Below are positions 11,993 through 42,584 of a stretch of 64,000 nucleotides of DNA, one piece after another. The position numbers and the translations under genes were made by a program. The stretch lies in contig OX485806.1 in assembly GCA_950295325.1 (NCBI GenBank), positions 47,735,169 through 47,799,168 on the forward strand, given 5' to 3'. The notes below the pieces were generated by a model. The model was not told where the DNA came from. It saw only the letters and a program-made list of their open reading frames with translations, and made no database searches. Position 1 is the first letter of the stretch. Each line of letters begins with the position of its first letter. The DNA is from Polytrichum commune. Lineage: Eukaryota; Streptophyta; Polytrichopsida; Polytrichales; Polytrichaceae.

Positions 11993-12081
11993 AAGCTATT
12001 TTGCGAGCGTAGAGCGGTGAGCGGTGAGCGGTGAGCGGTGAGCGGTGAGCGGTGAGCGGTGAGCGGTGAGCGGTGAGCGGT
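11993..12081 (+). repeat. MULE-2 left terminal repeat with ten GAGCGGT units
   Basis: After AAGCTATTTTGCGAGCGTA comes GAGCGGT repeated exactly ten times head-to-tail (12012-12081). The right terminus has only about two units, so the tandem has expanded at one end, probably by slippage. GAGCGG words also occur in the MULE-1 end at 6665 and inside the island at 21110-21175. Confidence 0.8.
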
Positions 12082-12500: not shown

Positions 12501-15500
12501 CTAAAAGTCAAGGTACTTCAGTAACCCACCCTCCAAAACTCGCTTCACTTTGTTGAAGCTAAAACTAGCTGCATGAATGAACGTGTCTGATTCTGAGTCT
12601 AAACCACAGACCACAATAAATAAATAGTACAAATGCTTACAGTTGGCCCATTGACCCCGTTTTCCAATTGCTTTAGTCGCCATCTCCTTGATTTTAGTGC
12701 ATGCTAGCAGATGCGAAATCGTCAAGTAGTATTACTGAACCTTTGGGGGCGTGCCGGAATCCAATGAAACGATGCATCCTAAGGCAGGGGCTGGAAGCAT
12801 GCACAAATTGTGCATTTTGGCATTCAGTGATAGGACTGAGGCACAATTATTGGCGTGTTTTGTTGACGGGGCCTTCTTGTTGCGCCTAATCAACTTCCCT
12901 GAACGGCGGGTGGGAAACTCATCCGGATATGCAGGAGTCGTGTAGCTTGCTAAGTCCAAAGGTAACGGGTGGTCCTGCAAAACTTTGGAAGGTGTCATAT
13001 CCTTCCGCTGGGGCAGTCTAAATCCTGCGTTTTCTAAAGAGAGGATCTCTTTGCAGGTTAAGTTGGTCCCCAACTTAACCGGCCATACCTCCAGAACGTT
13101 CGGGACTGAGACCACCCATCTTTTTTTTGTACCCTTAACGCATCTCTCAATGTCGTCACTGCAGAAAAAGAAGTCTTGAGGGTCCAATCTCTTCTTCCAA
13201 TAGTTGTCCATGAGGCCCGAGTAGGTAGGTGCAGCGGTGCTCTTCCCGTCTTGTACAATCCGAGCGACGCACTTCTTCTTAGTGATTGCTTGTAGAGCAA
13301 AGCAAGCCTTCGCAGATGTCTTAGGCAGCCGTGCGATGTACCACTGGGCAGGGTTGTATAATGTCTCCTCAATCGCGGTGACGTGGTACCGATCCACCTG
13401 CTGCGGAGCGTCGTGTGTTGGAAGTTGCGACTGCTCTTCATTTGTAGTTGTGGGAGAATCTGGAATTGTCGCAGGAGGTGGAAAATCGTTCAGTCGGGCA
13501 GATCTGGTTTGGACGCGTGGTCGGGATATACTGATCTTGTCTGGCTTGTGAGATTCACGTTCGTCACCGAACGCAGTATCTGGTTTACGCTTCAGAGAAA
13601 CAAATACCTCTTCCCCTTCGAGGTGGGGAGTCCTGGTGCACCACTCGTCACCGCCAGGCATCTTCAAAATGGCCTCATGCAGCGGTTTCGAGTTTCCTGT
13701 TTTTGCGGCTGACCTTTGAGCACGCCTCAACTTCAATTCCTATTTCGACGGTCCAGTTCCAGGGTTCTCTCCCTTCAAGAATTGGGAATATGCTAAGCAC
13801 TGCATGAAAGCACGCACGAAGTCATCGACTGTTGCCACATAAAGGTCACTGCCTCGATCGCCAGATTGCTGCTTCCACTTGTTATGAATAGATTCAGCAA
13901 GGTTACAGGATGGCATTTCCGTTAGTTCATCTTCACTTAGATCCTGCAATGAGAATACAGTCCGAAATTAGAATAATGGTGGAATCAATGTAGTTGAACT
14001 ATAAAGATTGAACTATAGAGGAAATATATAGGCAAGTATAGACTTACCAACTCCATAAATCCACCCCATTGGCGGTAACGGAAATACCAGAAGGCCAGCC
14101 AGAGCTCCAGTCGAGGTAGAGCTTGTTCAGTTGCTGCATCGGATGACATCCACCATGCCCGAATTGCCAGATACTTTGTCTCGGCCTCCGCCATCAATTT
14201 TGCATTCTTGTATTGCTGGCATAGTATTCGATGTTGATATTGCAGGTCTTGACGGATATCGGCCTTGGTATGTTTCTCCAAGGACTGCGTCCAATGGAAA
14301 AAACAAGTCCTCTCTCTGTCCACCATCCTCTCAGACGCATCTCCACTTCCGTATATGATTCGAACAGCATTCCAGTTGGTTTGGGCACTATCGGCCATGA
14401 AACCTTTAAAATTTACTTTGTCCACTCCATGTTGAGCCATGAGAGCGTTCAGGTTCTTCCATACGACTGACTGGGCTGCAACATCTTCAGACTGCATGTC
14501 GCATACTACGATGGTCATGACACGACAATATATGGAATCGTACACATGGCAAGCCATTGTCGTCCACGACCTGACCCGTTTGACATGGTCAAACATTATC
14601 CAGGAGTTCTCCAGATAACCACCGGATTGCATTCGTTTGACTAGGTCGACTCCGCTGCCCGGTCCAACTTCAGAGATTTTGAAGACAAAGACCTTGTCCA
14701 TGTCCGCTCCTTGCCCTAGAAACCTATTATGTTGCACGAACTTCCAATTGCTAGCACCGCGTAACTTGGTAATATTGTCCATGACTCCAAAGCGACGGAT
14801 AGTCCTGAACGTGGTGACTGCGTTACGAATGTTGGGCGAGGTGAGGTGCTTACACCGATCGAAAATAACTTGCAATTCGTCCAACTCCAAGATCTTCTGT
14901 GGTTCACCTTCTTTAGCAAGGAGGAGTGGGCCCAGTACTTCCTTTGCAGTTTCAAGCACAATAGCTGAGCGAGTGGCTGATGGGGTGCGTTCGATTTGCT
15001 CCCCAATCAAGTTGTTTGTCAAATTGATGAAGTCTCGATGATCACCTGACTTGACGGGATGGTCGTGAGATCCCAAATGCACACAAGCCCTCGTCATGTG
15101 AGGTGTCGCAGTAACATAGTAGATCTTGGAAGGGCAGACAGCAACACAAGTGGGAGGGACATTACAGGATTTGCAAACAACGGTTGAACCAATGGGAGGT
15201 TTGGACCCCATTTCAAACACTTTCTCAGATAATCTTTCCCACTCTGTTTCATTCACTTTGGAAGTCTTGTGGTCTCGCTGAAGATACTCATAGGCATGAT
15301 TGTCGCAACGGAGGTGGTCCAAACAAGAAGATGTACGAAACAAAAGCTTCAGATCATTCTGAATATTGGATGTAATCATGCAAGACCAAGCATGGCCATC
15401 GTACCTTCTATCCATTCCACGAAGCTGCTTGGCCTTTGTATTCTGGCCATGGTCACCTAAAGGTGGAAATTCGAAGATAACATCCCCATCGTAACGAGGG

Positions 15501-15589
15501 GGAAGGTAATCAACCTGCTGGAGTCTAATTGCATCAAAGTTAATTCGAGACAACACACTTTTGGACCGCTTACGAGCTCCAAGGCGCAT
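12501..15589 (-). pseudogene. MULE-2 transposase, zinc-finger/MULE type
   Basis: The minus-strand gene starts at the ATG at 15589. An N-terminal Cys/His region (C-x4-C-type SSCLDHLRC, then CKSCNVPPTCVAVC and ACVHLGSHDH) resembles the WRKY/GCM1-like fingers of MULE transposases. The core has ACHVYDSIY (about residue 345), FKGFMADSAQ and CFFHWTQSL, in the order of a DDE MULE domain. An intron with GTAAGT...TGCAG ends (13944-14047) sits at the same place as in MULE-1. A TAG at about 13740 and one at about 12732 interrupt the C-terminal part, which ends with the FIHAASFSF block. Defective relative of the MULE-1 protein. Confidence 0.7.
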
Positions 15590-15619
15590 CAATGAATGAA
15601 TGATACTGACAACAGGACT

Positions 15620-16138
15620 TTACACAACCTTGGACTGACCAGGATTACGAGACAAACTAACAGGAAGAGTTGTTTCCTTGCGAACTACTTGTGGAGACAG
15701 CGAAGCTTGGACTTTATTCTCTGATCTTAGAACTTCAACATCGCCGTCGGAATCATCACTCAACTCATAAATTGTTTTTAGACCGGGCTCAATTTTGACC
15801 CTAGACAGCACCGGTCTCTCAATGCTAACAGTGGACAACTCCTTAGGTGTTAGAAGTTCAGTCAAACACTCTAACATAGACTCTGAGACTCCATATACAC
15901 GATATTTTCCAAGCTTCAACAACCAGAACAAACCGACGTCATTCTCTCCTCTAGTTTGACGAACTGCATGTGAAAGTAGACCGGTTTGATCGTCAAAAAC
16001 TTCTTCTTCGACAAAGATAGTGACATCACGATACTGAAACCTCAAACTTAATGTTGTACAAGTGACTATAGCATGACCGTCTTCACCTAATGGAAAGAGG
16101 ACCGGAACATAATGATGTTCAACACGAAGCATGGCCAT
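15620..16138 (-). CDS. ORF1 upstream of the MULE-2 transposase, SUMO-motif protein
   Basis: Starts at the ATG at 16138 (MAMLRVEHHYVP), chosen because homology with the MULE-1 ORF1 begins there; about 172 residues. Conserved with MULE-1 are LLFP/VLFP, a beta-rich middle with WVERE/FVEEEV, and GKYRVYG. It then has VKIEPG (a SUMOylation consensus) followed shortly by IYELSDDSDGDVEV, which looks like a SUMO-interacting motif. It ends about 30 bp before the transposase ATG in the same frame, so it may be the N-terminal part of the transposase joined by splicing or readthrough, or a separate small protein. Confidence 0.55.
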   Translation of the reverse strand: MAMLRVEHHYVPVLFPLGEDGHAIVTCTTLSLRFQYRDVTIFVEEEVFDDQTGLLSHAVRQTRGENDVGLFWLLKLGKYRVYGVSESMLECLTELLTPKELSTVSIERPVLSRVKIEPGLKTIYELSDDSDGDVEVLRSENKVQASLSPQVVRKETTLPVSLSRNPGQSKVV

Positions 16139-17299: not shown

Positions 17300-17307
17300 T
17301 ATATAAG
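17300..17307 (+). promoter_or_regulatory. TATA box candidate of the ParB-methyltransferase gene
   Basis: TATATAAG lies 34 bp upstream of the first ATG (17334) of the plus-strand gene. MULE-1 has a comparable TATAAATA at 39094 before its copy of the same gene, which supports a real promoter, although the leader would be very short here. Confidence 0.45.
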
Positions 17308-18703
17308 ATCTGTTTGATTCAGTGTTGGTAGAGATGATCACTAGGTTGAGAGCGAGAGCAGATCAAGAAGTTAGGAGGTTTATTGAAAAACAGAGGCGTA
17401 TTGAGAGAAGGCAAAGGTTAGAATCAAGAGAGAGCTTAGAAATGCCGTACAACTTGCGGACAACAATGGGTAGAAGAGGGGTTAATTCTTCTAGGGGTAC
17501 AGGTAGAGGTTCAAAAGGGGAAAAGACGTTTGATGTCGCAGCGGTAGCTCCCATAGTTTTATTTCCTGTATCAGAGGAAGACAACCAAGTTGACAAAGGG
17601 GGCAGTGAGGTGTTGTTTATCTGCATTCCTAATGATATTATTTTCTTTTTAATCGTAATGTTAACCACTCTCACGGATAGTTAGAACAATTGAGACCCAT
17701 TTGCTTCCCTTTATGTAGTTTTTTATCTTTGGTGATGGAATGTAACTAGGATTTGGCTTGGGCATCTGGAACAGGGAGTGACGCAGACACAGCTTCAACC
17801 TGGGGCAGCCTCGAGTGCCTCAACATCAGATCATAGTGAGCAGCAGGTTTGTGAAGAATGTTTTCAATTGGTGACTTTTAGGGTTTTGGGTTTAGAGTAA
17901 TGTTTATTTCAAATGCCAACAATTTTTTAGGCCAACTTCTTAGCTAATGAGGACAGGACATATCCACTTAACAGAGCCTTGGAGATTTTGATGGGGATGC
18001 TGAGGTTGCTCAGTTAAGCCTAGGATAATTTGATCGCAACACTGATGTGGTAGATCTTTGCGAAGGGAGCATGGATAATGAGGAGAGGCACTTCGGGGAA
18101 GAGGTAGGCTTTCCCACATTCCTACACCCCGTAGGGTTCGAAGATCGAAGGTGTGACCTAATATTGTACTATCAGACCCGAGAGAGACTTTCTGAGCTTG
18201 TTTATCCATATCGGTGCCGAGGGGGACATTTGAGGAATCCAAGTCAATTCGGTGGTCTAAAATGGGCGAAGTAAGCTTACTTTGCATGTTTCCGAGTTAG
18301 AAATTAGGGGTTTGAATCATATGTGAGGCAGTTAGATTGAAATTCATGTGGGTGTCTCGGTCCCGAGATAGCTACTCGGAGGGGTTCTGAAATGGTTTGA
18401 AATTGTCATATTAAGCTTAATATGCGTGTTTCTTACTTAGAAAATAGGGGTCTAAATCAAATGTGGGGCAATTAGATTGAACTTCATGTGGGTGTCTCAA
18501 TCCCGAGATAGCAACTCGGAGGGGTATGAGGTGGTCTGAAATGGTCTCATTAAGCTTAGTTTGCATGTTTCTGAGTTAGAGATTAGGGGTCTTAGGTGGT
18601 CTGAAATGGTCTGGAATGGTCCGATTAAGCTTAGTTTGCATGTTACTTAGTTAGATAGTAGGGTCTGAATCATATGTGGGGCAGTTAGATTGAACTTCAT
18701 CTG

Positions 18704-19639
18704 TGTCGCAACCCTTGCTAGTTTCCTTCACTTAGCTTGACCGCCTTTCCCACCTAGCAAGTGCCACGAGCGCTAACTTGCACATCCCACGCACATGCAT
18801 GGTTAGCTCCCAAAACCGCGGACCTTCAAGCTCATGGCTAGGTCACCAAACCCTCCTACACATGCATTCGGGACTCTCCCCATAATAGGTAGCCAATGGC
18901 TAAGGTGGACTTCCATCCATGGAAGTCCACTCTTGAGTTGATCATCGTGTTGCCAAAACAACACTACAACTACCCGGAGCACATTGCCAAGTATGCTCCG
19001 GGGGGGTCGGTCGGCTAAGCCGCCTCACCCATATAAGCCTCTAGGACTTTGGGCGGGGCCCCTACCCCACCATCAAGTATCCTTTTGTCTCTCTACAAGG
19101 GGTGGGGCCAAGTGGACATTTTCCCTTAGCCGCTGGGGCTAGAACCTCCCAGCAGCTTCAGACCACCATAACTTCTACATATGATGTCTGATGCTCTCAA
19201 GCGACCACTCTATCGTCATCTACTCTTTGCGTAGATGCCGATGGACTCCTCACCTGCCCCATTTGGGCAAGTATTGAGGAAGTTATGGCTCCTCAAACCT
19301 TGGCAGTCCCGGGCACCACTCCCAGGTCACTGCTGTCCCAGGGTGCTGTCCCGGGACAGCGCCCCACTCAAATGGCCATATCTCCTAGCTAGCACCTCCG
19401 ATTGAGGTGTTCCTTAGCATTCTAGAATTCCACCGCCATAAGCTACTTGTAACTTATGGCCTTACCCTCATGACTCTTAGTCCTCGTGGGTGAGAGGCGT
19501 TCTCAACGCCCGGGGCCCTCACCCATACTAAGAGTACTTGGGCCCTCTCACCAATGGCGCCACAAGTCCCGGGTGTCACTCCGGGGTCCCCCTTGTGCCC
19601 ATGGTGTTGCGGGCACTCCTCATGGAGAGGTGCGCGACA
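18704..19639 (+). mobile_element. Solo LTR, TGTCGC family, copy A
   Basis: A 936-bp insertion starts TGTCGCAACCCTTGCTAG and ends GGTGCGCGACA, with a perfect 5-bp target duplication ATCTG (18699-18703, 19640-19644). It interrupts one unit of the intronic array. It contains a CATATAAG promoter-like word and inverted repeats shared by the family. Confidence 0.85.
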
Positions 19640-20579
19640 ATCTGGGTGTCTTGGTCCCGAGATAGCTACTGGGAGGGGTATTAGGTGGTTAGGGATGGTT
19701 AGGGATGGTTCTGAGTTAGAGATTAGGGGTCTTAGGTGGTCTGAAATGGTCTGGAATGGTCCGATTAAGCTTAGTTTGCATGTTACTTAGTTAGATAGTA
19801 GGGGTGTGAATCATATGTGAGGCAGTTAGATTGAACTTCATTTGGGTGTCTCGGTCCCGAGACAGCTGCAAGGAGGGGTATTAGGTGGCTAGAAATGGTC
19901 TGACTAAGCTTAGTTTGCATGTTTCTGAGTTAGAGATTAGGGGTGTGAATCATATGTGGGGCAGTTAGATTTAACTTCATTCGAGTGTCTCGGTCCCGAG
20001 ACAGCTGCAAGAAGGGGTATTAGGTGGTTAGAAATGGTTTGATTAAGCTTAGTTTGCATGTTTCTGAGTTAGAGATTAGGGGTGTGAATCATATGTGGGG
20101 CAGTTAGATTGAACTTCATTTGGGTGTCTTGGTCCCGAGACAGCTGCAAGGAGGGGTATTAGGTGGTTGGAAATGGTCATATTAAACTTAGTTTGCATGT
20201 TTTTGAGTTAGAAATTAGGGGTCTTAGGTGGTCTAAAATGGTCTGGAATGGTCCGATTAAGCTTAGTTTGCATGTTACTTAGTTAGATAGTAGGGGTCTG
20301 AATCATATGTAAGGCAGTTAGATTGAACTTCATTTGGGTGTCTCGGTACTGACATAGGTACTGGGAGGGGTATTAAGTGGTTAGAGATGGTCATATTAAG
20401 CTTAGTTTGCATGTTTCTGAGTTAGAAATTAGGGGTCTTAGGTGGTCTGAAATGGTCTGAAATGGTCACATTAAGCTTAGTTTGCATGTTTGTGAGTTAG
20501 AGATTAGGGGTCTGAATCATATGTGGGGCAGTTTGATTGAACTTCGTTTGGATATCTCGGTGCCGAGATAGCTACTGGG

Positions 20580-21335
20580 AGCAATGAACGGGTAGTGCCG
20601 GCAGTTAGTTACGAGCTAGCCGGTTGATTTTGAGAATTTCCGAATGCAATTGGAAAGTTTAGGCAGCGGTTCCGGAAAAAAATGAAGGTTGATGGAAAGG
20701 GGCCGATTAGAAAAATAAAATGCCGGCATTTCGGCAAGCTCCCCTTGAGTATCCACGGAAAATTGCTGATTGAGAAAAAAATTTCACGGCGGGCAGCCGA
20801 CCAAATATATATATTTTAGGTAAGGATTTCAATACTATGCATAGTTGGAGACTATGCCTTGTTGGCTTGTGGTTTAGGCCCTTTAGGGTTAGAGTGGCTT
20901 GTGGTTTAGGGCTCCCTTTGCTTCCCTAAACCAACTTTGACTCCGTAGTAGTGGAGGTTCCATTTTCGTTGTTGGTTTCACAAACAAGCACCTGGACCCT
21001 AAATTTTTTGTTACTTTTGTGAGAGAGTTGTTGTGTCGTCGTAGTACGTGTGTGATTCGTGAGGGAGCCGGCCTCTTTGAGTTGTGAAATCTATGAGTTG
21101 TGATACCTGTGAGCGGAGAAACCTGTGTGAGCGGCGAAGTCTGTGTGAGCGGAGAGGCGAAGTCTGTGAGCGGCGAACCCATAACCATTGCTTCAAACCC
21201 ACCAGGCATCCTTAAAGAAAGAAAAAGACGGAGAAGGAGAAGGAGCGGGCGCGGGCCGGGCGAGGCGGTGCGGTGCGGTTCGTTTTGTTTCGTTTCGTTT
21301 CGTTCTTCAGCTTTCTTTTTCTTTGAGTTGTGAGT
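20580..21335. other. Non-array island inside the palindrome array, with GTGAGCGG repeats
   Basis: About 750 bp unrelated to the surrounding units. It contains a cluster of GTGAGCGG/GAGCGGCGAAG words at 21110-21175 that recall the MULE terminal repeat, and a GGCTTGTGGTTTAGG duplication near 20870-20910. It also has CGTTTTGTTTCGTTTCG simple repeats near 21280. It may be a degraded small non-autonomous MULE insertion. Array units with the palindrome resume immediately at 21343. Confidence 0.35.
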
Positions 21336-23288
21336 ATGAGTGTCTCGGGACCGAGACGCTCTTTTTGGAACAAATTTGTGTGTAAAAAGTGTATTCTGAT
21401 ATGAGGATAGATAGGTCTGAAATGATTTCCTAGTTGTGAGTATGAGTGTCTCGGGACCGAGACAACTGCAAGGAGGGGTATTAGGTGGTTAGAAATGATC
21501 TGATTAAGTTTAGTTTGCATGTTTTTGAGTTAGAGATTAGGGGTGTGAATCATATGTGGGGCAGTTAGTTTTAACTTCATTCGGGTGTCTCGGTCCCGAG
21601 ACAGCTGCAAAGAGGGGTATTAGGTGGTTAGAAATTGTCATATTAAGCTTAGTTTGCAGGTTTGTGAGTTAGAAATTAGGGGTCTTAGGTGGTCTGAAAT
21701 GGTCATATTAAGTTTAGTTTGCATGTTTGTGAGTTAGAAAGTAGGGGTCTGAATTATATGTGAGGCAGTTAGATAGAACTTCATTCGGGTGTCTCGGTCC
21801 CGAGACAGCTGCAAGGAGGGGTCTTAGGTGGTTAGAAATTGTCATATTAAGCTTAGTTTACAGGTTTGTGAGTTAGAAATTAGGGGTCTTAGGTGGTCTG
21901 AAATGGTCATATTAAGCTTAGTTTGCATGTTTGTGAGTTAGAAAGTAGGGGTTTGAATCATATGTGAGGCAATTAGATAGAACTTCATTTGGGTGTCTCG
22001 GTCCCGAGACAGCTGCAAGGAGGGGTCTTAGGTGGTTAGAAATTGTCATATTAAGCTTAGTTTGCATGTTTTTGAGTTAGAAATTAAGGGCCTTAGGTGG
22101 TCTAAAATGGTCATATTAAGCTTGGTTTGCATGTATGGTATACATTATGCGATGTATTAGCAATGCCGGCCCGATTTTCAATGAAATGTTGTTATACGCT
22201 GTATAACTTGTTTACACATAGAAAGTATCGAACCTGCAGGTTGAGAACAACGCAAAGGATATTGTTCCTGGTGTTTCTCAGGTTTCTATGGAAAATTTTG
22301 AAGAGGGGCTTGGAGATAGAGATCCATATGAAGGTGATGAAGATGATATCAAGACTCGACAGAAACTTAACTCCGTTGCCACAATTTCTCGACTGAGAGT
22401 CCAACCCCTGAGTTCTTCAAGGTTCCATATTCCCTTGTGCAGAATGTTGGCCATGCCTATGGTGAGGCCAACTCTCTCAAGTGATCTTGCTAAATTGGAG
22501 CATGAGTTTGTCCATGGGTGTAGAGAGGGTGCCTCAGTATTTTATGTCACAATAACGGATGAAGAAGGCAAAACACATGAGGTGACTGAAGCGCATAAGA
22601 CATCGTGGGGTCCCATTTGGAGTGCCAAAAATGAAGAATTCAACTCCTTTCTTCAGTCCGTTCCGGATTTAGCAAATTTTAAGAATTTGATGTTCTTTGT
22701 TTGTAACGGGAACCATAGGCGGCATGCTTGGCTCAATCATATTCAAGACTTCACAAAACCGAAGAGGCCTGGCATTGTTCGGTGGATAGCATCCTACTTA
22801 ACACGAAGGGGAAAATTGGTGTTGTTATGCAAGTTATGCATAACATCAACAAGTAAGTTTTCATTATGTAATGTTTTCATCTATGTACACTACTTTGAAT
22901 CTACAAATATTATGATGTGTTAATCTTTACTCTATGATTATTGATTGTAGACATACTGAAGACTCTCACGTCAAGACCAACACAGTTCACACTCTATTTA
23001 GGGTGCAGAAATATGGACTTCTGCCGCTCGAACAGTACCAAGACATATTGACTCCAGCGGACATTAAAAGGTGCAAGAATTCTCAAAATAGGAAGAAGAC
23101 GTGGTATTCATTAAATCTACATGTTTTTACGAACTTCATATTCCAAGTATGATCTCTATTTATTTTTTATTCCTTCTATTTATGTTTGACTAGAAGTGGG
23201 AAATTTGGATTATTAGACTAAGCTGTTCTGCTCACGTATAAAGACCGCCTGTGTTACTTTTTGTTTTGGCCAGATATCAATTGTTGAA

Positions 23289-23302
23289 TCTCGGGACCGA
23301 GA
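23289..23302 (+). promoter_or_regulatory. Palindrome TCTCGGGACCGAGA inside a coding exon
   Basis: An exact copy of the array palindrome lies in the exon that begins at 23274, where it encodes ESRDRDI. It is outside the repeat arrays. If the palindrome is a protein-binding site, this one would be fixed by both coding and binding needs; it may also be the source of the arrays. Confidence 0.4.
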
Positions 23303-25076
23303 TATAGTTTCTACACTAGCTTTGGATGTCGAAATTTCATATGCATTCGTCTTTCTTTTTTGTTATCTATTTCAACATTATATTGCTCTTGATCTACTTC
23401 ATCATCTTGATGACAAACTAACTAAGGTAATCCTTTTGCAGCACGAACTGGCACAAACTGCAGATGAAGGTGTTCGTCAACTTGTTGAACAAACGGATGG
23501 AGAGGTGTGTGCTGCTGAGAAAGCAACCGCCATGAAGGTAGCTGCTTCAAAGAGAGCCGAGGCACTTCATAAGAAAATGTCAGAACTAGTTTGTGTGGCA
23601 AACCCAAAGTTGACAGATGGATGGCTTCGAGAGGTATGCCCACTATTTTAAGACCCATTTTTCATTCCTCAAGTAATTCAATGAACTCCATGATTCTAAT
23701 ATATTGCTCTATGGTTCACAGATTGCGCGTCACTATACTCTTAACTCAATTACACCGGAGCTCAACTTAGAGAAATTGCAGTTGATTGCTACTGCAAAAG
23801 CATCACCCGCTTCTAAAATCAAATGGTTGGAATATTTCAATTCCTCTACATCAACCCGTGAGGCCCGCAAAGTGCCAACCAAGCCCACCAACGAGGAGAA
23901 ATTGCAGGCATTCCTATCCAAGGCATGTTTTTGGGAAGGAGTGAGTACATATCCTCCTATGTACCCTTTAGTTATGTGTGACCTGATTTGAGCACTTACA
24001 TTAATTCGGCCTTTCTCTTAGTCTTGCTCACTCTGATGTCAATATATGAATAAGTTTTGTTCTCATTCTTGCTCTCGGCCTTGCTCACTCTGTTTCTACA
24101 GATATCCGATCAGGCTTCCATTATCTTTGAAGACACTTTGCGCCAAGATAGACTGGCTATCAACTTTGATATACCCAGCAAGCCCTTGACCTTGGCTTTA
24201 TACATCGAGGACTGTAGAATGAAATTATGGGAATATGCGTTTTCCACCTTCTTCCGAGGGCAGGAGGCTTTTAACAAAACTCTCGAATTTGTGGGATTTA
24301 ACGGGACTAACTTAATTGTGCGAAGAGTACTCTTTCGGTGCGTTTTCTCTTTTAACTACTAGTACTCTCTTATATTTGGCATAGTGTTTTGGTTTTTCAC
24401 ATGACAGTTATTTCCATTGCAAGGTATATAATGATGAGTTGTGTCTTACCCGCAGGTATTTCAAGTACGAACTCCTTGCAAAAGGAGCAATAACAAAAGA
24501 AGATCTCCCCATATTTCTCTCTGCATGGCTGGACAGGTCTAACTCAACGTGCATGTTTTCAGCAAATCAACAGGGTACGTGGTCAACCTCACATCTCACA
24601 GGAGGTGGTTGGTACCTTGACTGTGCTCCTAGTTTCACTCCTTCCTTTGAAACTGAACTTAGGAAGTCAAGGGAGGCAGTTGGAGAATCTGGTGTTGAGA
24701 TGGTTGACTTACAGGGCATAGAAGACGAGCATGAGAGGGCAAAGGCCCTCTCGCGACGTCTTGAAGAGGATAGGAAGAAAACGCTTAGAGTAAAGGAAGC
24801 AGAGGAGAAAGCGGCATAGAAAGAGATGGAAAAACTTCAGAAGTCATTGGAGAAGACTAGCATGAGGGGGAAAAAGAAGATGAAACCCCATTCTGAGCCA
24901 GAAGGTAAAAGTCTTCTTTCTCCAAGCCCGACTAATGATTTTGGATCTCAAGCTCCTATTTTTTCCCGAGGTACAAAGCGGGATTCTTCATACGACCAGT
25001 TGAGTCCTGTTTTTTATTTGGGAGAGGAGAACGAAAGCCAGATTGACGAGCTCATTCTCAATGCCTCCATGATGGA

Positions 25077-26074
25077 TGTCGCGCACCTCTCCATGAGGAG
25101 TGCCCGAAACACCATGGGCACAAGGGGGACCCCGGAGTGACACCCGGGACTTGTGGCGCCGTTGGTGAGAGGGCCCAAGTGATCCTAATGTGGGTGAAGG
25201 CCCCGGGCGTTGGGAACGCCTCCCACCCACAAAGACTAGGAGGCACAAGGGTAAGGCCATGAGTTATGCGTAGCTCATGGCGTGGTGATTCTAGAATGCT
25301 CAAGAACACCTCAATCGGAGGTGTGAGCTAGGAGTTATGGCCATTTGAGTGGGGCGCTGTCCCGGGACAGCGCCCTGCTACAGCAGTGCCTGGGAGTGAT
25401 TCCCGGGACTGCCAAGGTTCAAACAGGCATAACTTCCTCAAGACTTGCCCGAATGGGGCAAGTGAGGAGTCCATCGGCATCTACGTGAAGCGTAGATGAA
25501 GATGGAGTGGTTCGTTGTTATGATCAGACATCATACAAGGAAGTTATGATGGTCTGAAGCTGCTGGGGGGGTTCTAGGCCCAGCAGCTAAAGGAAAATGT
25601 CCACTTGGCCCCAACTCTTGGTAGAGAGACAAGAGGTTGGTTGACGGTGGGGTAGGGGCCCCGCGTGAAGTCCTAGAGGCTTATATGGGTGAGGTGGTGT
25701 GGCCTCACCCACCCGAGGCCGAACGGCACGGCCTCCATGGGCATTGGCCCAATGTGAGGCCATAGTTGCCTAGTATGGTTCGGGTTGTTGTAGTGTTGCT
25801 CCGGCAACGCGATGATCAACATGGGATTGGACTTCCATGGATGGAAGTCCACATCTAGGAATGGGTTACCGATTAAGGGGTGAGTCCCTAAAGCAAAGTA
25901 GGAGGATTGGTTCCCTCCTATGAACTATAAGGTCCGGGGTAGGAGGAGCTAACCATTAGCATGGCGGAATGCGAATGGTTAGCGCTCGTAACCTTTGCTA
26001 GAATTGAAAATTGGCAAGATTGCTAAGGGGGTTAGCAAGGGTTGCGACAAGGAGGGCTAGCAAGGGTTGCGACA
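25077..26074 (-). mobile_element. Solo LTR, TGTCGC family, copy B, inserted in an exon
   Basis: A 998-bp insertion in reverse orientation (starts TGTCGCGCACC, ends GTTGCGACA) with the target duplication ATGGA (25072-25076, 26075-26079). Its last 25 bp, ending GCTAGCAAGGGTTGCGACA, are present twice. It interrupts the exon of the ParB-methyltransferase gene that encodes LILNASMMD before it and EVFGNSSDDYTSYYK after it, so it postdates the functional gene. Confidence 0.85.
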
Positions 26075-26479
26075 ATGGAAGTCTTTGGCAATAGCTCAGA
26101 TGACTACACCTCTTATTACAAAGACTTAAAAAGCTTCATGATTAAGGTATTTTTTCTTTTATTTGTTATGCCAACATTAACAATTTTTATTTTCATATTA
26201 TAGTTTAAGCGACGTGATCATTTTAAGTGAAAGAAGGATCTTTTTTTTTACCTCTTATAATTTTTGCATCTCAACTCTGATTTTGACACATGGAAAAACA
26301 ATCTTCATGATACACAAATGCTAACTGGATGAAACAATTTGTAATCCCATCCAGCAGCCAGAAGTGCACGTGAAGTTAGAAGTGTCCATTATAGGCATGC
26401 ATACCTTATACAAGATTTGTATATGGTTGGGATATGGTTCATAATAGCCATACAGAAATTCAAGTAGTAAAATGAGTTA

Positions 26480-27280
26480 TTAGGTGAGGGGTATTAGGTG
26501 GTTAGAAATGGTCTGATTAAGCTTAGTTTGCAGGTTTGTAAGTTAGAAAGTAGGGGTCTGAATCAAATGTGAGGCAGTTAGAATGAAATTCATTTGGGTG
26601 TCTCGGTGCCGACATAGCTACAGGGAGGGGTATTAGGTGGTTAGGGATGGTCATATTAAGCTTAGTTTGCAGGTTTGTGAGTTAGAAATTAGGGGTCTTA
26701 GGTGGTCTGAAATGGTCTGAGCTGGTCATATTAAGCTTAGTTTGCATGTTTATGAGTTAGAGATTAGGGGTCTAAATCATATGTGAGGCAGTTAGATTGA
26801 ACTTCATTTGGGGGTCTCCGTGTCGAGATAGCTACTGGGAGGGGTATTAGGTGGTTAGAGATTGTCATATTAAGCTTAGTTTGCAGGTTTGTGAGTTAGA
26901 AATTAGGGGTCTTAGGTGGTCTGAAATGGTTAGAAATGGTCTGATTAAGCTTAGTTTGCATGTTTGTAAGTTAGAAAGTAGGGGTCTGAATCATATGTGA
27001 GGCAGTTAGATTGAACTTCATTTGGGTGTCTCCGTGCCGAGATAGCTACTGGGAGGGGTATTAGGTGGTTAGAAATTGTCATATTAAGCTTAGTTTGTAG
27101 GTTTGTGAGTTAGAAATTAGGGGTCTTAGGTGGTCTAAAATGGTTAGAAATGGTCTGATTAAGCTTAGTTTGCATGTTTGTAAGTTAGAAAGTAGGGGTC
27201 TGAATCATATGTGAGGCAATTAGATTGAACTTCATTTGGGTGTCTCCGTGCTGAGATAGCTACTGGGAGGGGTATTAGGT
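26480..27280 (+). repeat. Second palindrome array, 214-bp units
   Basis: Four units in the intron just before the methyltransferase exons are spaced exactly 214 bp at the palindrome position (26601, 26815, 27029, 27243). Here the palindromes are decayed (TCTCGGTGCCGACA, TCTCCGTGCCGAGA and similar). The unit sequence is otherwise the same as in 18301-22125, so the same array type occupies two different introns. Confidence 0.8.
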
Positions 27281-28888
27281 GTATTAGCTACTTGGGTAGT
27301 GGGACTCGTTCCTGATTGCCAAAAAATGGACCAGTAGATGTAGATGTACTAATTTCTGGGTGTGTTTGTATACTGAGCAGCATTCCACTGGCAAAGTTCG
27401 ATTGTATAAGGGGACTACCGGTGTCCAGCCCTGTTTGGACTTGATACTTGCTGATATCCCGCAAGGCTTGCCCGTTCCAGGGATCTCCAACCCACCAACG
27501 TCGATTCCTGCCTGGAATCAAAAAACTCACGAGTGGCTTCAGCCAATCTTTGATTTTGCAGATAACCATTTGCATGATGACGGGGCCATCATTTTATTTC
27601 ATCATTTTCGAATGACTACAAAAGCCATGATTCTTGGATATTGTGAGTGTTTCGGTTTTCAAGTTCGGAAGGAGTGGTGGGGTATGAACCGCCTTCATCT
27701 GACGTCCCCGATTAACCAGAGTGTCACTGTAAGTTAATTCTCTAATTTAAATTACTCTTTATTTTTTAACAATTTTAAAACATTGTTTGACACGAATGCT
27801 ACATAATGATTTTCTCATATTTTTGGTTCATTGTTCTCAGTTGACAAGTGCTGCTTGCAATGGCTGGACCCTAACTCAGTCCATAGGTCTTGGAATCTCA
27901 TTGGCTGATGTGGAGTTCTGAACTGCTTTGTTCTGTATATTGAACTCATTAATTTTGGACCATGCCTGGCAAACCTACTTCCAATTTCTCATTTCAGCCT
28001 GTCCCCGCTCTTGACCAACATGGGGTAGATGTATCAAGAGATGATATTCTAAAGAACCTCGTCTCTCGTGATGATCAGCTCATGAATGGACCCACGCCGT
28101 GGCGAGGTCCAAGAGAGAAGTCTACTCTTTTAATGTAGATGTTAATTCAAAGTTCTTCCTCTCTTGGGGATGTTGTTTTAGACTGCACTGCTGCTATGGG
28201 TATGTTAATTCAATCTGCCAACTCACATCTTTAACTATTTGTTTTTAGTTCCACAGAAAGCACACTAATTTTATTGTCATTCTTTTTATTGTAGGTTCTT
28301 CCATCCATGCGTCCCGCAACGTCCAGCGTCACATCGTGGCATTAGAGGCTGATGAGGCCATTTTCCATGCCTTGCTTAAACCCTTGATTCATTCGAGTGT
28401 TGCTCCTGAGGTCACTTCTGGAGCAACGGCAACTAGTGAGGACCCGGAGGGCGATGTACTTGTGGTCCCGAGAATTGTGAAGAAGTCTCGATTCAGTAAG
28501 TGAGTTTGTTGAACATTCTCTCATATATTTGTTTTATTTTTTAGCGTCATTGTATCTAATATCGAGTCCTAAACATGGTACTTTTGGAATTTGCAGATAT
28601 GGAGCAATGAGCTATCCTAGTCACCGCCCTTTCTTCTGTGACCCTACGTTTCATCCAAGTCCTCCAAAGTCCTGGCAACTCCCTTCATACGCAAATGACG
28701 TTGCCAATGAATTAGCGGAAGGTTCATATCGTACATTTAGACCTAAGAATTTGATGCTAAGAGGTATAGAGTATGTTGATTTACAAGCTGTTGAATCTGA
28801 GGATGAAGGCTCCTCAGATGTAGATAGTACAGATTCTAAAGTCTCTGTAGCATTATCTAATAATTGTGATTTCAATTATATGACTTAG

Positions 28889-29348
28889 CTAGAATTTTGT
28901 GTCTTATTGCTTACATTAAAATATATTTTTGCATTTGATTATTCAGTGTCCTTTTAGTGTGGGTATAACGGGAATAACTAAACCAAAAAATTAAAGATGA
29001 AAAATATAAAATATCAATACATTTTTAAGAATTACAAAAAATAAGAAGATAGACTGGAAGAAGAATGGAAGAATAAATCCTAAACAAATAAATAACGGAA
29101 GAAAAATGGAAGAATAAAAAAATAAGAAGATAGAATGGAAGAAGAACGAAAGAATTAAGAAATTGCACTACTTATTTTGTATTATAATAATTACACCCTC
29201 GCATTCTGAAATTAGCCCCTAAACCTGAACCACAGATATAGGCATGATTTTTTCCCTAAAATATTGTATTATATTCAAAACAACTATCAAAACCGCGGTC
29301 ATAGGATATGATTCAGTTGACAGCAATTTCCAAAATTACAAAAAAGTC
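28889..29348. other. AT-rich subterminal region of MULE-2, no gene seen
   Basis: Downstream of the last stop of the ParB-methyltransferase gene is AT-rich sequence with AGAATGGAAGAA-type short repeats (about 29050-29155). It probably holds the polyadenylation region; no coding sequence is seen. Confidence 0.4.
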
Positions 29349-29374
29349 ACCGCTCACCGCTCACTAAATAGCTT
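29349..29374 (-). repeat. MULE-2 right terminal repeat
   Basis: CACCGCTCACCGCTCACTAA followed by ATAGCTTT is the inverted counterpart of the left end, with about two GAGCGGT units instead of ten. Gypsy sequence resumes immediately after. Confidence 0.65.
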
Positions 29375-31470: not shown

Positions 31471-31806
31471 GCAGAGGATTCTGGTCATGGGGCACAACGG
31501 TCCACATCCATGAAAGAGGGAATTGATGTCAGGGTTGGAGAAGCCGAACGAATCTTTCGATTCGAGCAGCAGGTAATGGAGGAGCTCCGAGCTCAACGAG
31601 TTTATACTGCTTTGGCTTCTTCACCTCCGGTGGTGGCTTCATCATCATATATTGGTGGTGATGAAGAGGGGATGGACTCTATTGCTAGCACGGAGGTTGG
31701 GGGCATGGTTAATGTCCCCTCCTCTCATTAGCAGTTAGAGTCCGCGCCAGCACCAGGTGGCTCTCTTCCAGTGGAAAGGGAGACCACATAGTTTGATGAT
31801 TGGCCA
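31471..31806 (+). pseudogene. Linker between methyltransferase and reverse transcriptase
   Basis: In the same reading frame as both neighbours. It has a coiled-coil-like segment (RIFRFEQQVMEELRAQRVY) and a Ser/acidic-rich part, with TAG stops at 31729 and 31789. The 1-802 fragment carries the same linker. No catalytic domain is seen. Confidence 0.55.
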
Positions 31807-35156: not shown

Positions 35157-35704
35157 TGTCGAAATGTGTTGTTCATGTGTGACCTTGCTTTGTTTTAGTG
35201 TTGTTTGTTAGTGGTCGTTTGTACTCGAGCTACAGTGACACACGATCGGTATTTACACGAAAGTTGTCACGGTATGCAGCGTCGACGGCCGCACCTTATC
35301 CGTTGGGCTTCATTCATTTAGAGTTAGATGGATGAACCTTAGTTTTGGAAAGTGAGGCTCCTAAGTGAGGAGCCTCCTCCTTGGCTTGGCATTTTTGCCA
35401 AGTCAAGTCTTGTGAGTGAGTGTGTGGAGAGTGCTTGTGTGAGGTGTAGATTGCATGTTTTTGCAATAAATATTGAATTTTTCTCCCCTCTCTTGCACTC
35501 TTGGATTCTCTCGTGGTAGAGTGAGAAATAATTTGACTAAATGTGTGCATTTGAAGAGAAATTTAGAGCTATTATGAGTGTTTTATTCTCTTCCTTCTCT
35601 GTCAAGGTATGTTGTTTATGTGTGACTTTGCTATGTTTTAGTGTTGTTTGTTAGTGGTGGTTGGTACTCGAGCTGCAGTGACACACGATCAGTATTTACA
35701 CGAC
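35157..35704 (+). repeat. 3' LTR plus the first 105 bp of another LTR
   Basis: 35157-35599 is a full LTR (TGTCGAAATG... TTCCTTCTC). At 35600 a new LTR start (TGTCAAGGTATGTTG) follows directly and runs to 35704, where the ATCAC target duplication begins. The 35599/35600 join looks like an LTR-LTR junction of a two-LTR circle. The 5' LTR at 8220 lacks exactly this first part, so the insertion is circularly permuted. Confidence 0.65.
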
Positions 35705-35709
35705 ATCAC

Positions 35710-38466
35710 CTTCAAAATGGTCCCGTCCATAGCTCGTGCAGATGCGACCATCTGCATTTGTTTTGTTGATGGTGCGGTGGCAGACCGTCTCGTATTCCTG
35801 GACTGCCTGGAAGAAGGATACGAGTCTGGGTTGGCTGAAATGTCCACTCCAGAGAGGTCGAATGGAGGAGTCGATGTGTTGAAGAGGCGGGTGGGCGTGA
35901 TGCGCTCTTTTTGAGGGAGCTGAAAGCCGGCGTTCTCAAGCTTAAGGATCTCCGGACGAGTGAGGTTGGTACCAATCTTGACAGGCCACACGGGCGGGAT
36001 TGAAGGTCGTTCTTGGTTTGCAGAGAATTTGTCGACCCACTTGCGATGGGATCCTTTGACACAACGTTCAATGTCGTCTGGGAAAAAAAAGCTTCTCGAC
36101 CTTAGGTGTTGTGAATTTGTAATAGTTCCAAACTCCAAGGTATGCCGGTGCAGGGGTGCTCTTGGAGTTGGAGACGATTTTGGCAGTGCATTTCTTCTTT
36201 GTGACAGCATGCATGGCCCAACATGCCTTGAAGGAATTGTAAGGAACTCGAGCAATATGCCAGAGCTTCTCGTCGACTTCGGATTCTTGAACAACAGTGA
36301 CTCGGCGAAAATCCAGACTTGTAGGGGGGGTGGAACCTTGAGCACTGACGGAGAAGACTCCTCGATGATAGTAGGCAGAGGTGAAGCATGAGATCTTGTG
36401 GTTTTCTGAGCGACACGAGGGCGAGACAAGTTAAGGGTGTCGGGGCGGTGGGTCTCATCGTCAGCTCCAATGGGGGTGTCAGGCTTGCGTTTTTGGGAGC
36501 CAAAGACCTCGGCACCCTCAAGGTGGGGACTACGAGTACAAAATTCCTCTCCGCCACGCATGTCGAGAAGAACCTTCTGCAGGATAGCGGGGTCATCCGT
36601 ACGTTGAGCACAACGTTGAGCGGCACGAAGCTTGAGTTCTTCTTTGCTAGGGCCATCGCCCCCAACGCCACCCTTAAGAAACTGACGGTACGCCACAACT
36701 TGGAGGAAGGCTCGAATATAGTCATCCATAGTGGCCACGTATAGATCGCCACCTTTGTTGCCGAACGCTTGGAGCCATTTGTAGGGAATGGACTCGGCAA
36801 GGTTGCAATTGGGCATTTGTGCAAATTCCTCGGCGGTCATGATTTTCTTCTGCGAAATGGAAAGGGTGTGCAAGAAATAAGAAAAGCTTGAAAAAAAAGA
36901 TAAAAGATAAAACAAAGAGCAATAACACTAAAGACGCACCAATTCCATGAAGCCACCCCATTGTCGATAACGAAAGTGCCAGAAGGCCAGCCAAAGCTGA
37001 AGGTGTTTCAACCCCTCCTCGGAGGTGCAGCTAGACGAAGCCCACCAGGCCTTGATGGCGAGGTACCTCGTTTCCGCCTCGAGCATAGAGGATGCATCGC
37101 GATACTGCAAGCATAGACGCTTGTGTTGGTCTTGCAAGTCATGCTTGATATACAGCTTGGTGTGTTTCTTTAAAGACTGGGTCCAATGGAAGTAGCAGGT
37201 TCTTTCACGCCCATCGATGGGAACCTTTGGGTCTCCGGACCCGTAAACAATCCTCACGGCATTCCAATTGGCTTGGGCACTATCTGCCATGAAGCCTTTG
37301 AAGTGGGGCTTGGGGAATCCATGGCGGGCCATGACGTGGTTGAGGTTATGCCAGAAAAAAACTTGAGCATCCTTGTCCTCGGATTGGAAGTCGCAAAAAG
37401 CGATGGTCATGACGCGCTGGTAGGTTCCATCATATACGTGGCAGGCCATGGTGGTCCACTTGGCGACGCGTTTGACAAGGTCAGACATCATCCAAGCATG
37501 CTTGAGATCCCCACCAGGTTGCATGCGCTTAACCAAGTCGACCCCACTACCAGGGCCGACCTCAGACATCTTGAAAACGAAAACTTTGTCCGTATCGTCA
37601 CCCTGTCCCGAGAATTGATTACACTGGACATAGGCCCAATTGCTGACACCTCGAAGCTTGGCGATGCCATCCATAACCCCTAACCTACGTAAGTATTTGA
37701 AATTGGTAACCTTGTTACGGAGGTGGGGGGAATTCAACTCCTTGCAACGATCAAACACGGGCTCAAGTTCTTCCAACGAGAGAAGGTGATGAGGATCACT
37801 ATCATTACGAAGGAGGAACTCACCCACAAAGTCCTTGCTGGCTTCAAGGACGATTTTGCTATGAGTGGCTTGGGGCGTTCGCTCGACGTGCTCCTCGATT
37901 AGGGCGTCGATGCGTTGGCGGCTATCTCTGCAGTTGCCGACCTTGACTAGGTGGCAATGGTTGCCAAGATGAATGCATGCACGCTGAGTGGTGTCATTGC
38001 CGTGGACGTAGAAGATTTTGGCGTGGCATGGTGCAATGCATGTGGGGGGCTCCTTACAGATCCTGTACATTAGAGCGGAGCCCAAAGGGAAGGGACCACG
38101 AACTGGAAAGGGCACCTTTGTGAAGCCGTTGAAATTAGTTTCATTGACCGGGGAAGTGCGACAAGCACGTTGGAGGTAATCGCAAAGAGGATTTTGGCAT
38201 TGGAGGTGGCCAACGCAACTGGAGGAGCGAAAAACAAGGCCCATGCCATTGGTGATATTGGTGATCTGGGTTTTGGTCCAAACATGGCCGTCATAGCGTT
38301 TGTCCATGCCGTCCATGGATTTGGCCTTCGTATGAGAGGACGAGACGCCTACTGGGGGGAGGACAAACATCCGATTCCCATCAAAACGAGGCGGCAGGAA
38401 ATTCACCTCTTCAATTTGCAATGTGTCATAATCCAGTTTCTTGAGGATGTTCTTCCTACCGGGCAT
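35710..38466 (-). pseudogene. MULE-1 transposase, zinc-finger/MULE type, main part
   Basis: The ATG at 38466 (MPGRKNILKKLDYDT) matches the start in MULE-2. The N-terminal region has RYDGHVWT, SSCVGHLQCQNPLCDYLQR, CKEPPTCIAPC and ACIHLGNHCH (WRKY/GCM1- or FLYWCH-like zinc ligands). The core has CHVYDGTYQRVM (DGTY is the classic first MULE motif, about residue 345), FKGFMADSAQANWNAV (second Asp, about 392) and CYFHWTQSLKKHT, followed by a Glu-rich helix LEAETRYLAIKAWW. The intron is 36850-36939. Downstream are MPNCNLAESIPYKW and a Ser/Pro/basic tail. The frame is otherwise open; only the gypsy insertion at 35704/35705 separates it from its end at 7902-8219. Would cut and join transposon ends in the nucleus. 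Confidence 0.7.
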
Positions 38467-39004
38467 GGAAGCAAGAGAACGTAGACATTGAAGAATGGAA
38501 TTCGGGGGTTTGGCTGGGGAGGGAGGATGGGGATGGCTTGTGAATGGGAGAGGATACGGGGGGCTCATCACCATCAAAGGAATCGGAAAGATGTATGACA
38601 GTGTGTGTACCGGGTTCAATCTTAACTTTGACCAAGGGAGGAGTATTGAAAGTGAAAGCAGAGGAATGAGGAGGGGTACGGATATCCGTGGATACATTCG
38701 TGCAAGGACCTGGGAGTCCGTACACACTGTATTTACCAGCGCAGAGTTCCCACATTGAAGATCCGTTGTCGGCAACCCTAGGATTCTCATGCATGGTCAA
38801 TGACAAAAGAGAAGTAGCAGTATCATAAATCTCGCGTTCGACCCATATTGTATTTTTTTGCAACCAAAACCTGATACTAAGGTCCAGGGAAGAGACAGAT
38901 GCAAATCCGTTCGCATCTATGGGGAAAAGAAGGGGGATCCCCACGCCATTGGAACGGAGCTCAACCATTTCCGTTAAAGAAGGCATTTTGGACGAGGAAG
39001 CCAT
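38456..39004 (-). CDS. ORF1 upstream of the MULE-1 transposase, SUMO-motif protein
   Basis: An intact frame of 182 residues from the ATG at 39004 (MASSSKMPSLTEMVELR). It shares PLLFPIDANG, WVEREIYD, CAGKYSVYG and VKVKIEPGTHTVIHLSDSFDGDE with the MULE-2 ORF1. VKIE fits a SUMOylation site, and the IHLSDS-acidic stretch fits a SUMO-interacting motif. Its end overlaps the transposase ATG (38466) by about 11 bp in another frame, so the two are either separate proteins or spliced together. No known domain is recognised. Confidence 0.6.
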   Translation of the reverse strand: MASSSKMPSLTEMVELRSNGVGIPLLFPIDANGFASVSSLDLSIRFWLQKNTIWVEREIYDTATSLLSLTMHENPRVADNGSSMWELCAGKYSVYGLPGPCTNVSTDIRTPPHSSAFTFNTPPLVKVKIEPGTHTVIHLSDSFDGDEPPVSSPIHKPSPSSLPSQTPEFHSSMSTFSCFHAR

Positions 39005-39093
39005 GGAGATAGAGAGAGGGCATAGTAAAAGGGGTCCTGTAAGGGAACTTAAACCCTAGGCATCGGGAAACCCTAAATATCATACATGGATAG

Positions 39094-42200: not shown

Positions 42201-42268
42201 GACTGCATTGTTGTGGACCCAAGAAACTGCACCGCAGTCTTCCTTAATGCGATGAATGACATCAACTG
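39204..42268 (+). CDS. ParB-like domain gene of MULE-1, 5' exons
   Basis: Exon 1, 39204-39548, is very basic (KRKRRKGG...KQRKRRKLKKKG, a strong nuclear signal) and ends at a GTAAGA donor. A middle exon lies near 41457-41577 (SLDLTGSQRHSMEDHNVELL). The exon at 41691-42268 (TTTTTTTCAG acceptor, GTGAGT donor) has RFPIPLCRLRCLPLGRPI, YRDGDRVLYVSP, then MFFVWEGNHRLTAWFRHI. The G-[NH]-H-R-L-x-A box is the signature of ParB/sulfiredoxin-like domains, which bind DNA and in ParB bind nucleotide. A TAG at 42037 breaks the exon. Introns hold the palindrome repeats, a solo LTR and the satellite. Later exons, including any methyltransferase, are not found in the window. Confidence 0.65.
39669..40004 (+). 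repeat. Palindrome array of MULE-1, about 107-bp units, first block
   Basis: TCTCGGAACCGAGA or near variants occur at 39669, 39777, 39885 and 39991 (spacing 106-108 bp), each next to a G-run and followed by GTGAGGGACTTTGATTTTAG and GGTGTGATTTCTGAAATG. They lie in intron 1 of the ParB-like gene. The unit has no similarity to the MULE-2 arrays except the palindrome. Confidence 0.85.
40005..41456. other. Intronic repeats and solo LTR host region of MULE-1
   Basis: Outside the solo LTR (40362-41298) this intron has two to three degenerate copies of a unit with GTTGTGGGTGAYATTGATG, TGGTGTGGCCAAGTTTGATA and GGTGTGGAGTGGGGTTGTGG (about 40030-40190, 40200-40360, 41305-41415). No coding sequence; antisense open frames here follow the repeat period. 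Confidence 0.6.
40362..41298 (-). mobile_element. Solo LTR, TGTCGC family, copy C
   Basis: A 937-bp insertion in reverse orientation, starting TGTCGCGCACC and ending GTTGCGACA, with the target duplication TTGAG (40357-40361, 41299-41303). It lies in intron 1 of the MULE-1 ParB-like gene. Confidence 0.85.
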
Positions 42269-42359
42269 GTGAGTTTTTGGATTTTGAAAGTGTGTGACTT
42301 TGAGTTTAGTTTGAAGTAAATGTGTTCGAATTCTGGTATGATTTTTGAAATGTGGGGGG

Positions 42360-42584
42360 TCTCGGAACCGAGAGGGGGGGGGGGGAGGTGTATGTAGTGA
42401 AGGAGTTTGATTTTAGTTTGAAATATTTTCAGTTGAAATATGGTGTGATTTCTGAAATGTGGGGGGGGTCTCAGAACCGAGAGGGGGGGAGGTGTATGTT
42501 GTGAGGGACTTTGATTTTAGTTAGAAATATTCCTTGTTCAAATATGGTGTGATTTCTGAAATGTGGGGGGGTGTAATTCTTATA
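42360..42584 (+). repeat. Palindrome array of MULE-1, second block
   Basis: Two palindromes (TCTCGGAACCGAGA at 42360, TCAGAACCGAGA-type at 42469; spacing 109 bp) with the same unit as 39669-40004, in the intron after the ParB-like exon. The block runs directly into the first 85-bp satellite unit. Confidence 0.8.

What the first reader, a model, noticed from the sequence alone, without database searches (positions are those of the whole stretch)
17334..28888. Transposon gene fusing a ParB-like domain to a permuted (beta-class order) amino-methyltransferase
A spliced eukaryotic gene inside MULE-2 has a ParB-like box (GNHRRHAW), long helical regions, a DPPY-like motif (ADIPQGLP at about 27450) and then, in later exons that join in phase, GDVVLDCTAAMGSS and RHIVALEADEAIF, the SAM-binding block. 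Motif IV before motif I is the order of bacterial and phage N6A/N4C methyltransferases, and ParB-methyltransferase fusions are a phage/bacterial style. I know of no described DNA transposon with this gene. Capture from a bacterium or phage, followed by intron gain, is my inference.
Basis: partly seen in the sequence, partly recalled or inferred. Interest (0 to 1): 0.92.

Follow-up and report, generated by a model that had tools for sequence, protein, structure and literature searches.

The report
Transposon gene with adenine-type DNA methylase
A decayed DNA transposon in a eukaryotic genome, probably an alga or early plant, carries a many-exon gene whose end is a bacterial-style DNA methylase and whose start looks ParB-like; similar genes have been reported in brown, red and green algal transposons, but here the element also carries repeated copies of one short palindrome that could be where the protein binds.

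Summary
The gene is real, but this copy is broken (one frame change, two in-frame stops, a ~975-bp repeat inside an exon). The ParB half is not proven: family, profile-profile and HMM tests were negative. It does show a ParB-like GxxR box, conserved in a second, 43%-identical copy at 41.7-42.3 kb. Both copies lie divergently beside related transposase-like genes (56% identical). 'No described DNA transposon with this gene' is wrong: Ectocarpus Sola1-1_Ec32 encodes a ParB-like plus N4C/N6A methyltransferase protein opposite its transposase, and its authors cite green and red algal cases (PMC12477816). New here: the dyad TCTCGGNNCCGAGA occurs 13 times exactly, only in elements A and B, 10 of 13 in tandem arrays, with none expected. 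I propose a self-marking or anti-silencing protein acting on those arrays, as VANC proteins do in VANDAL elements. That mechanism is inferred.

The parts
11993..12081 (+). probable left end of element A: TIR-like AAGCTATTTTGCGAGCG followed by (GAGCGGT)n
   Evidence: score 41, 0 of 500 single-base shuffles reach it, but the part outside the GAGCGGT repeat is reached by 73 of 1000; no target-site duplication next to the ends
12531..16108 (-). transposase-like gene, copy A (broken by stops), SWIM-like remnant at its C end
   Evidence: 41-42% identical to the two ORFs of L001 by tblastn; 56% to copy B over 523 aa; no transposase family in Pfam
17307..17684 (+).
   Evidence: no match in copy B
18247..22137 (.). 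tandem arrays (139/204/214-bp units) upstream of exon E1, with TCTCGGNNCCGAGA dyads; interrupted by a 975-bp-type repeat at 18704-19642
22240..22852 (+). exon E1: ParB-like region with the GxxR box GNHRRHAW; frame changes near 22782
   Evidence: 57/133 identical to copy B
22951..23146 (+). exon E2
   Evidence: in phase with E1 tail and E3
23274..23633 (+). exon E3, contains one dyad site at 23289-23302
23722..23940 (+). exon E4
   Evidence: in phase
24102..24337 (+). exon E5
   Evidence: in phase
24456..25076 (+). exon E6 with an in-frame TAG at 24817-24819
25077..26049 (.). ~975-bp repeat inserted in the gene; 95.8% identical copies at 49534-50506 and 55083-56055
26077..26146 (+). likely rest of exon E6 after the insertion, ending at a GT donor
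   Evidence: inferred
26487..27281 (.). 214-bp tandem array before E7, with four dyads that carry 1 or 2 mismatches
27376..27728 (+). exon E7: DIPQG (motif IV-like) and the following region; 5' edge unresolved
27998..28199 (+). exon E9: motif X-like region and first part of motif I; contains an in-frame TAG
28295..28499 (+). exon E10: rest of the SAM-binding block
28597..28888 (+). exon E11, C-terminal tail and stop
29358..29374 (-). probable right end of element A, TIR-like
35689..39055 (-). transposase-like gene of the second element (B)
39643..40010 (.). ~107-bp tandem array of element B with TCTCGGAACCGAGA dyads
41700..42269 (+). ParB-like exon of element B (GNHRLTAW), one in-frame TAG; no later exon found in the window
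42270..42571 (.). second dyad-bearing array of element B, just after its exon E1

Best explanation
A degenerate copy of an accessory gene of a large (about 17.4 kb) MULE-like DNA transposon. Shown: the gene's first half lies divergently beside a transposase-like gene in two diverged elements, and copy A ends in a permuted (beta-class order) N6-adenine/N4-cytosine methyltransferase domain. Inferred: its N-terminal half is a ParB-like nucleotide/DNA-binding domain; both halves form one protein; the intact protein binds the dyad TCTCGGNNCCGAGA repeated in the element's introns and intergenic arrays and methylates the element's DNA, marking or protecting it against host silencing (VANC-like) or regulating transposition. 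This copy would not be expected to do so.
For: PF01555 37.4 bits, cut-off 26.7, and 34.2 without E8; DpnA and CcrM are the best PDB matches. Divergent linkage to a homologous transposase in both elements. Element A lies between a gag-like ORF and gypsy pol on the plus strand, with TIR-like ends. GxxR box conserved in both copies. 13 exact dyads, all in elements A (10) and B (3), 0 in 100 shuffles. An 1104-aa ParB-like + methyltransferase protein is encoded opposite the transposase of Ectocarpus Sola1-1, whose authors propose such proteins bind and modify their own transposon (PMC12477816). VANC targets form tandem repeats in introns and upstream regions of VANDAL genes and vary between related elements (PMC5735166).
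Against: No profile support for ParB; both structure predictions failed (mean pLDDT 30.9 and 33.5). The catalytic motifs are off consensus (DIPQ for DPPY; DCTAAMGSS for D-F-G-G), so activity cannot be assumed. No methyltransferase part was found for copy B, so the two halves are seen together in one copy only, across an insertion and an unresolved exon edge. No binding or methylation data; the dyad could belong to the transposase or be carried by the arrays without function. Array flanks show a weak mean similarity between A and B, above control means but under the 95% levels, so shared descent may explain part of the dyad sharing. No dyad in L001. No target-site duplication.
Confidence: 0.5

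Rival explanations
1. Two neighbouring genes: a ParB-like/helical gene (E1-E6) and a separate methyltransferase gene (E7-E11), not a fusion.
For: An insertion at 25077-26049 and a repeat-filled stretch separate the halves; no E7 acceptor was found; copy B shows only the first exon.
Against: Same strand; the likely end of E6 runs open to a GT donor with no stop; an 1104-aa single protein with the same two domains is described in Ectocarpus.
Confidence: 0.2
2. The dyad arrays are sites for the element's transposase, or passive satellite, and the methyltransferase gene is unrelated to them.
For: Arrays amplify by tandem duplication; within A the dyad positions (0.93) are only slightly better conserved than flanks (0.85), though in B the contrast is larger (0.96 vs 0.71).
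Against: Same 12 dyad bases in two elements whose array flanks barely align; a further context inside E3; no exact dyads in the rest of the window.
Confidence: 0.35
3. The first half is not ParB but a transposon-specific domain in which GNHR arose by chance; only the methyltransferase is of bacterial type.
For: All profile tests negative; the real sequences rank among shuffles; at least 10 of 60 shuffled alignments scored higher in hhalign.
Against: The box is conserved in both copies at 39-43% overall identity and is the best local match, in register with the GxxRxxA box; literature analogue with the same two domains.
Confidence: 0.3

Closest known systems
ParB-like + N4C/N6A methyltransferase protein of Ectocarpus Sola1-1_Ec32 (PMC12477816, passages), with green and red algal cases cited there (Iyer 2011; Petroll 2025, neither held)
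   Same: same two predicted domains, about 1100 aa, opposite strand to the transposase, giant DNA transposon
   Different: transposase there is Sola1; here it is MULE-like or unclassified; sequences could not be compared; dyad arrays are not mentioned in the passages I read
Phage ParB-N6_N4_Mtase fusions (e.g. Latilactobacillus phage TMW 1.2272 P1, L003; PMC12704722, passages)
   Same: domain order ParB then PF01555
   Different: 384 aa, one ORF, DPPY present
VANC anti-silencing proteins of VANDAL MULEs (PMC5735166, passages)
   Same: transposon accessory gene; short motif amplified as tandem repeats in introns and upstream regions that differ between related elements
   Different: no similarity tested; VANC causes loss of host methylation, whereas this gene encodes a methyltransferase
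Methyltransferases in viral Mariner elements (Mariner-2_PGv, Mariner-1_OLpv; PMC3627910, passages)
   Same: DNA transposons carrying a methyltransferase gene
   Different: Mariner, other methylase domains, no ParB-like part mentioned in the passages
C5 methyltransferase-bearing retroelements of charophytes and dinoflagellates; Dam-like genes in DIRS (PMC5890265, passages)
   Same: transposable element encoding a DNA methylase
   Different: retrotransposons, other methylase classes

Membership tests
PF01555 N6_N4_Mtase (beta-class amino-methyltransferase) | profile match above curated cut-off | tested here: met
   37.4 and 34.2 bits vs 26.7
PF01555 N6_N4_Mtase (beta-class amino-methyltransferase) | motif IV before motif I | tested here: met
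   DIPQG in E7, GDVVLDCTAAMGSS in E9/E10 (motif names recalled; the profile match starts after DIPQG)
PF01555 N6_N4_Mtase (beta-class amino-methyltransferase) | intact catalytic (D/N/S)PPY | tested here: not met
   DIPQ in this broken copy; no intact copy available
ParB_N (PF02195) | profile match | tested here: not met
   no ParB family; no better than shuffles
ParB_N (PF02195) | GxxR phosphate-binding box | tested here: met
   GNHR in copies A and B; motif as in PMC12704722
ParB_N (PF02195) | ParB/Srx fold | tested here: inconclusive
   AlphaFold mean pLDDT 33.5
MULE superfamily | transposase profile match | tested here: inconclusive
   none for window copies; L001 PF00872 E 0.038, below cut-off
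MULE superfamily | D-D-CxxH-W-E pattern | tested here: inconclusive
   D344, D410, C439xxH442, W507 invariant in 3 sequences; Muta1 has D214, D283, H307, W401, E419; E523 is Q in L001
MULE superfamily | 8-11 bp target-site duplication | tested here: not met
   no direct repeat adjoining the TIR-like ends; the only ones found lie about 20-40 bp outside; the ends themselves are uncertain
Algal transposon ParB-methyltransferase accessory genes | gene opposite a transposase in a DNA transposon | tested here: met
Algal transposon ParB-methyltransferase accessory genes | sequence homology to the Ectocarpus protein | not testable with these tools
   sequence not held; protein database switched off

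The most novel reading that the evidence does not exclude
The transposon encodes its own epigenetic self-recognition system: a ParB-like/N6A-N4C methyltransferase that recognises a parS-like dyad (TCTCGGNNCCGAGA) amplified in the introns of its own gene and in the element's intergenic DNA, spreads from there, and methylates the element to escape host silencing or time transposition, parallel to but independent of VANC/VANDAL.
Probability: 0.25. Interest if true: 0.85.

Novelty: new variant of a known kind. Interest (0 to 1): 0.55.

Why it matters
Transposon genes that could write 6mA or 4mC on their own DNA bear on how bacterial-type DNA marks entered eukaryotes. The class has been noted in one open paper of which I read passages. 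This window adds what looks like a further transposase type, shows the ParB-like gene beside the transposase in two diverged elements, and offers a concrete candidate binding site that can be tested by EMSA, DAP-seq or methyl-aware long reads.

Tried and rejected
ParB by sequence: Pfam, PHROGs and NCBIfam scans gave no ParB family (only unrelated hits, E 0.068 or worse). hhalign against the first 130 residues of 10 phage proteins from ParB hits (10 chosen of 275 records, 60 of them listed) gave 14 columns, probability 0.34%; only the ten best of 60 shuffled scores were printed and all ten exceeded it. hmmsearch --max gave copy A rank 503 and copy B rank 755 of 1330 reported rows (2002 sequences given). 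All negative, so I do not file it as ParB.

Structure prediction of the transposase core and of the copy-B ParB-like exon on two-row alignments failed (mean pLDDT 30.9 and 33.5), so no fold search was run.

Relatives: viral contigs gave none in five scans. Genome contigs gave one transposase relative, L001, in a record titled cyanobacterial MAG, which I take for a eukaryotic contaminant; its transposase ORF runs off the contig on the side where a divergent gene would lie. The nearest phage hit to the methyltransferase is E 0.2; plasmids gave only weak hits to the transposase (E 5 to 8). The profile of the three transposases found nothing relevant in the PDB, nor did the ParB-like pair. The methylase call was checked without the uncertain exon E8.

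Dyad as chance or a general palindrome excess: rejected. Among gapped 6+6 dyads with gaps 0-8, TCTCGG with gap 2 is the commonest and the only one with three or more copies in both A and B; the other dyads shared by A and B have one or two copies in each, several also in the rest of the window. DNA hairpin folding of two sites was unremarkable (z -1.61 and -0.55).

Element ends: the 17-base end pattern was made from the two ends themselves, so its exact match there is no independent test.

Papers. PMC12477816, PMC12704722, PMC5890265, PMC5225508, PMC6446971, PMC5735166 and PMC3627910 were seen only as passages found by term. Iyer 2011 and Petroll 2025 are not held. All ten paper searches. Recalled, from no call: names of methylase motifs, the Srx fold name as a target, the guess that the host is a charophyte or early plant.
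Full report
WHAT IS THERE. The plus-strand gene at 22240-28888 has GT-AG introns. From the E1 tail to E6, five introns join in phase into 567 codons with one stop; E9-E10-E11 also join in phase with one stop before the end. It is a broken copy: E1 changes frame near 22782, E6 and E9 each contain a TAG, and a ~975-bp repeat sits in E6 at 25077-26049, with 95.8% identical copies elsewhere in the window. Exon E8 and the 5' edge of E7 could not be fixed, so the join of the two halves is inferred.

METHYLTRANSFERASE. The joined E7-E10 translation matches PF01555 with 37.4 bits (cut-off 26.7; E 3.5e-9), and 34.2 bits without the doubtful E8. E9+E10 alone gives 25.0 bits, just under the cut-off, and E7 alone gives none. 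PHROG methyltransferases (E 2.7e-5 and weaker), NCBIfam CcrM (E 3.3e-4, far below its equivalog cut-off) and PDB DpnA and CcrM (E 0.001 and 0.038) agree. DIPQG precedes GDVVLDCTAAMGSS, the permuted order. Both motifs depart from consensus, so this copy would not be expected to act even if whole.

PARB HALF. No library or profile test supports it, and folding failed. In its favour: copy B of the exon (41700-42269) is 57/133 identical, and both copies keep a GxxR box (GNHR), the conserved P motif of the ParB-CTPase fold in PMC12704722 (passages). That box is where both profile comparisons place their best, though not significant, match. I call it ParB-like, unproven.

THE ELEMENT. To the left on the minus strand lies a transposase-like gene (16108-12531). 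A second element has the same divergent pair: transposase 39055-35689 (56% identical over 523 aa) and ParB-like exon 41700-42269; no later exon of the gene was found in the window for it. A third transposase homologue, L001 (47%), ends in a SWIM-like CxC..CxH by my reading. D344, D410, C439xxH442 and W507 are invariant in three sequences, similar to the MULE Muta1 (passages of PMC5225508), but the glutamate candidate is not conserved, and Pfam gives only a sub-threshold Mutator hit for L001. Element A lies between a gag-like ORF (10303-11751; CCHC match just below cut-off) and gypsy pol (reverse transcriptase, RNase H and integrase parts at 31792-34029) on the plus strand, which I read as insertion into one gypsy element. 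TIR-like ends AAGCTATTTNGNGAGCG lie at 11993 and 29374. The full end match beats 500 shuffles, but the part outside the GAGCGGT repeat does not stand out (73 of 1000). No target-site duplication adjoins the ends.

DYAD ARRAYS. TCTCGGNNCCGAGA occurs 13 times exactly (chance mean 0.00), 10 in element A and 3 in B, none elsewhere. With up to 2 mismatches there are 27 (chance 1.34), of which one, at 695, lies outside both elements. Ten of the 13 exact sites lie in tandem arrays; the other three are at 21343, 21449 and in exon E3 at 23289. The arrays lie upstream of exon E1 in both elements, just after E1 in B, and before E7 in A, where only mismatched dyads remain. No word longer than 12 bases is shared between the A and B arrays, and their flanks align above control means but under the 95% levels, while the 12 dyad positions are the same. 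None was found in L001. This fits a protein-binding site. Which protein reads it is not known.

MECHANISM AND NOVELTY. Best reading: an accessory protein that binds the element's own dyads and methylates its DNA, for self-marking, anti-silencing or control of transposition. VANC proteins of VANDAL elements give a working parallel: their targets form tandem repeats in introns and upstream regions that differ between related elements (passages of PMC5735166). Ectocarpus Sola1-1_Ec32 already has a ParB-like plus N4C/N6A methyltransferase gene opposite its transposase; its authors propose that such proteins bind and modify their own transposon and cite green and red algal cases (passages of PMC12477816). 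So the gene class is known; the transposase context, the second copy and the dyad arrays are what this window adds. I found no mention of such dyads in the passages read; the full papers and supplements were not read.

Noticed in passing
window 10303-11751 and 29463-34875: A gypsy-type retroelement with reverse transcriptase, RNase H and integrase parts, a PHD finger (E 5.6e-11) and a C5 DNA-methylase fragment (PF00145 E 0.001, below cut-off) in pol, apparently split by element A; charophyte retroelements with C5 methylases are known (PMC5890265, passages).
   Followed up: partly
window 7932-8548: Relic of a third transposase of the same family (SWIM-like end, minus strand); 8216-8548 is 92% identical to 35267-35599.
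   Followed up: no
window 42569-59150: Very long 85-bp tandem array, interrupted by copies of the ~975-bp repeat at 49534-50506 and 55083-56055; it begins just after the last piece of element B.
   Followed up: no
L001 (CADCWO010000080.1): Contig filed under a cyanobacterial MAG encodes a eukaryotic-looking transposase 47% identical to the window's; probable contamination of the bin.
   Followed up: partly
window 12012-12081 and 29347-29364: Subterminal GAGCGGT repeats at both ends of element A in inverted orientation.
   Followed up: partly
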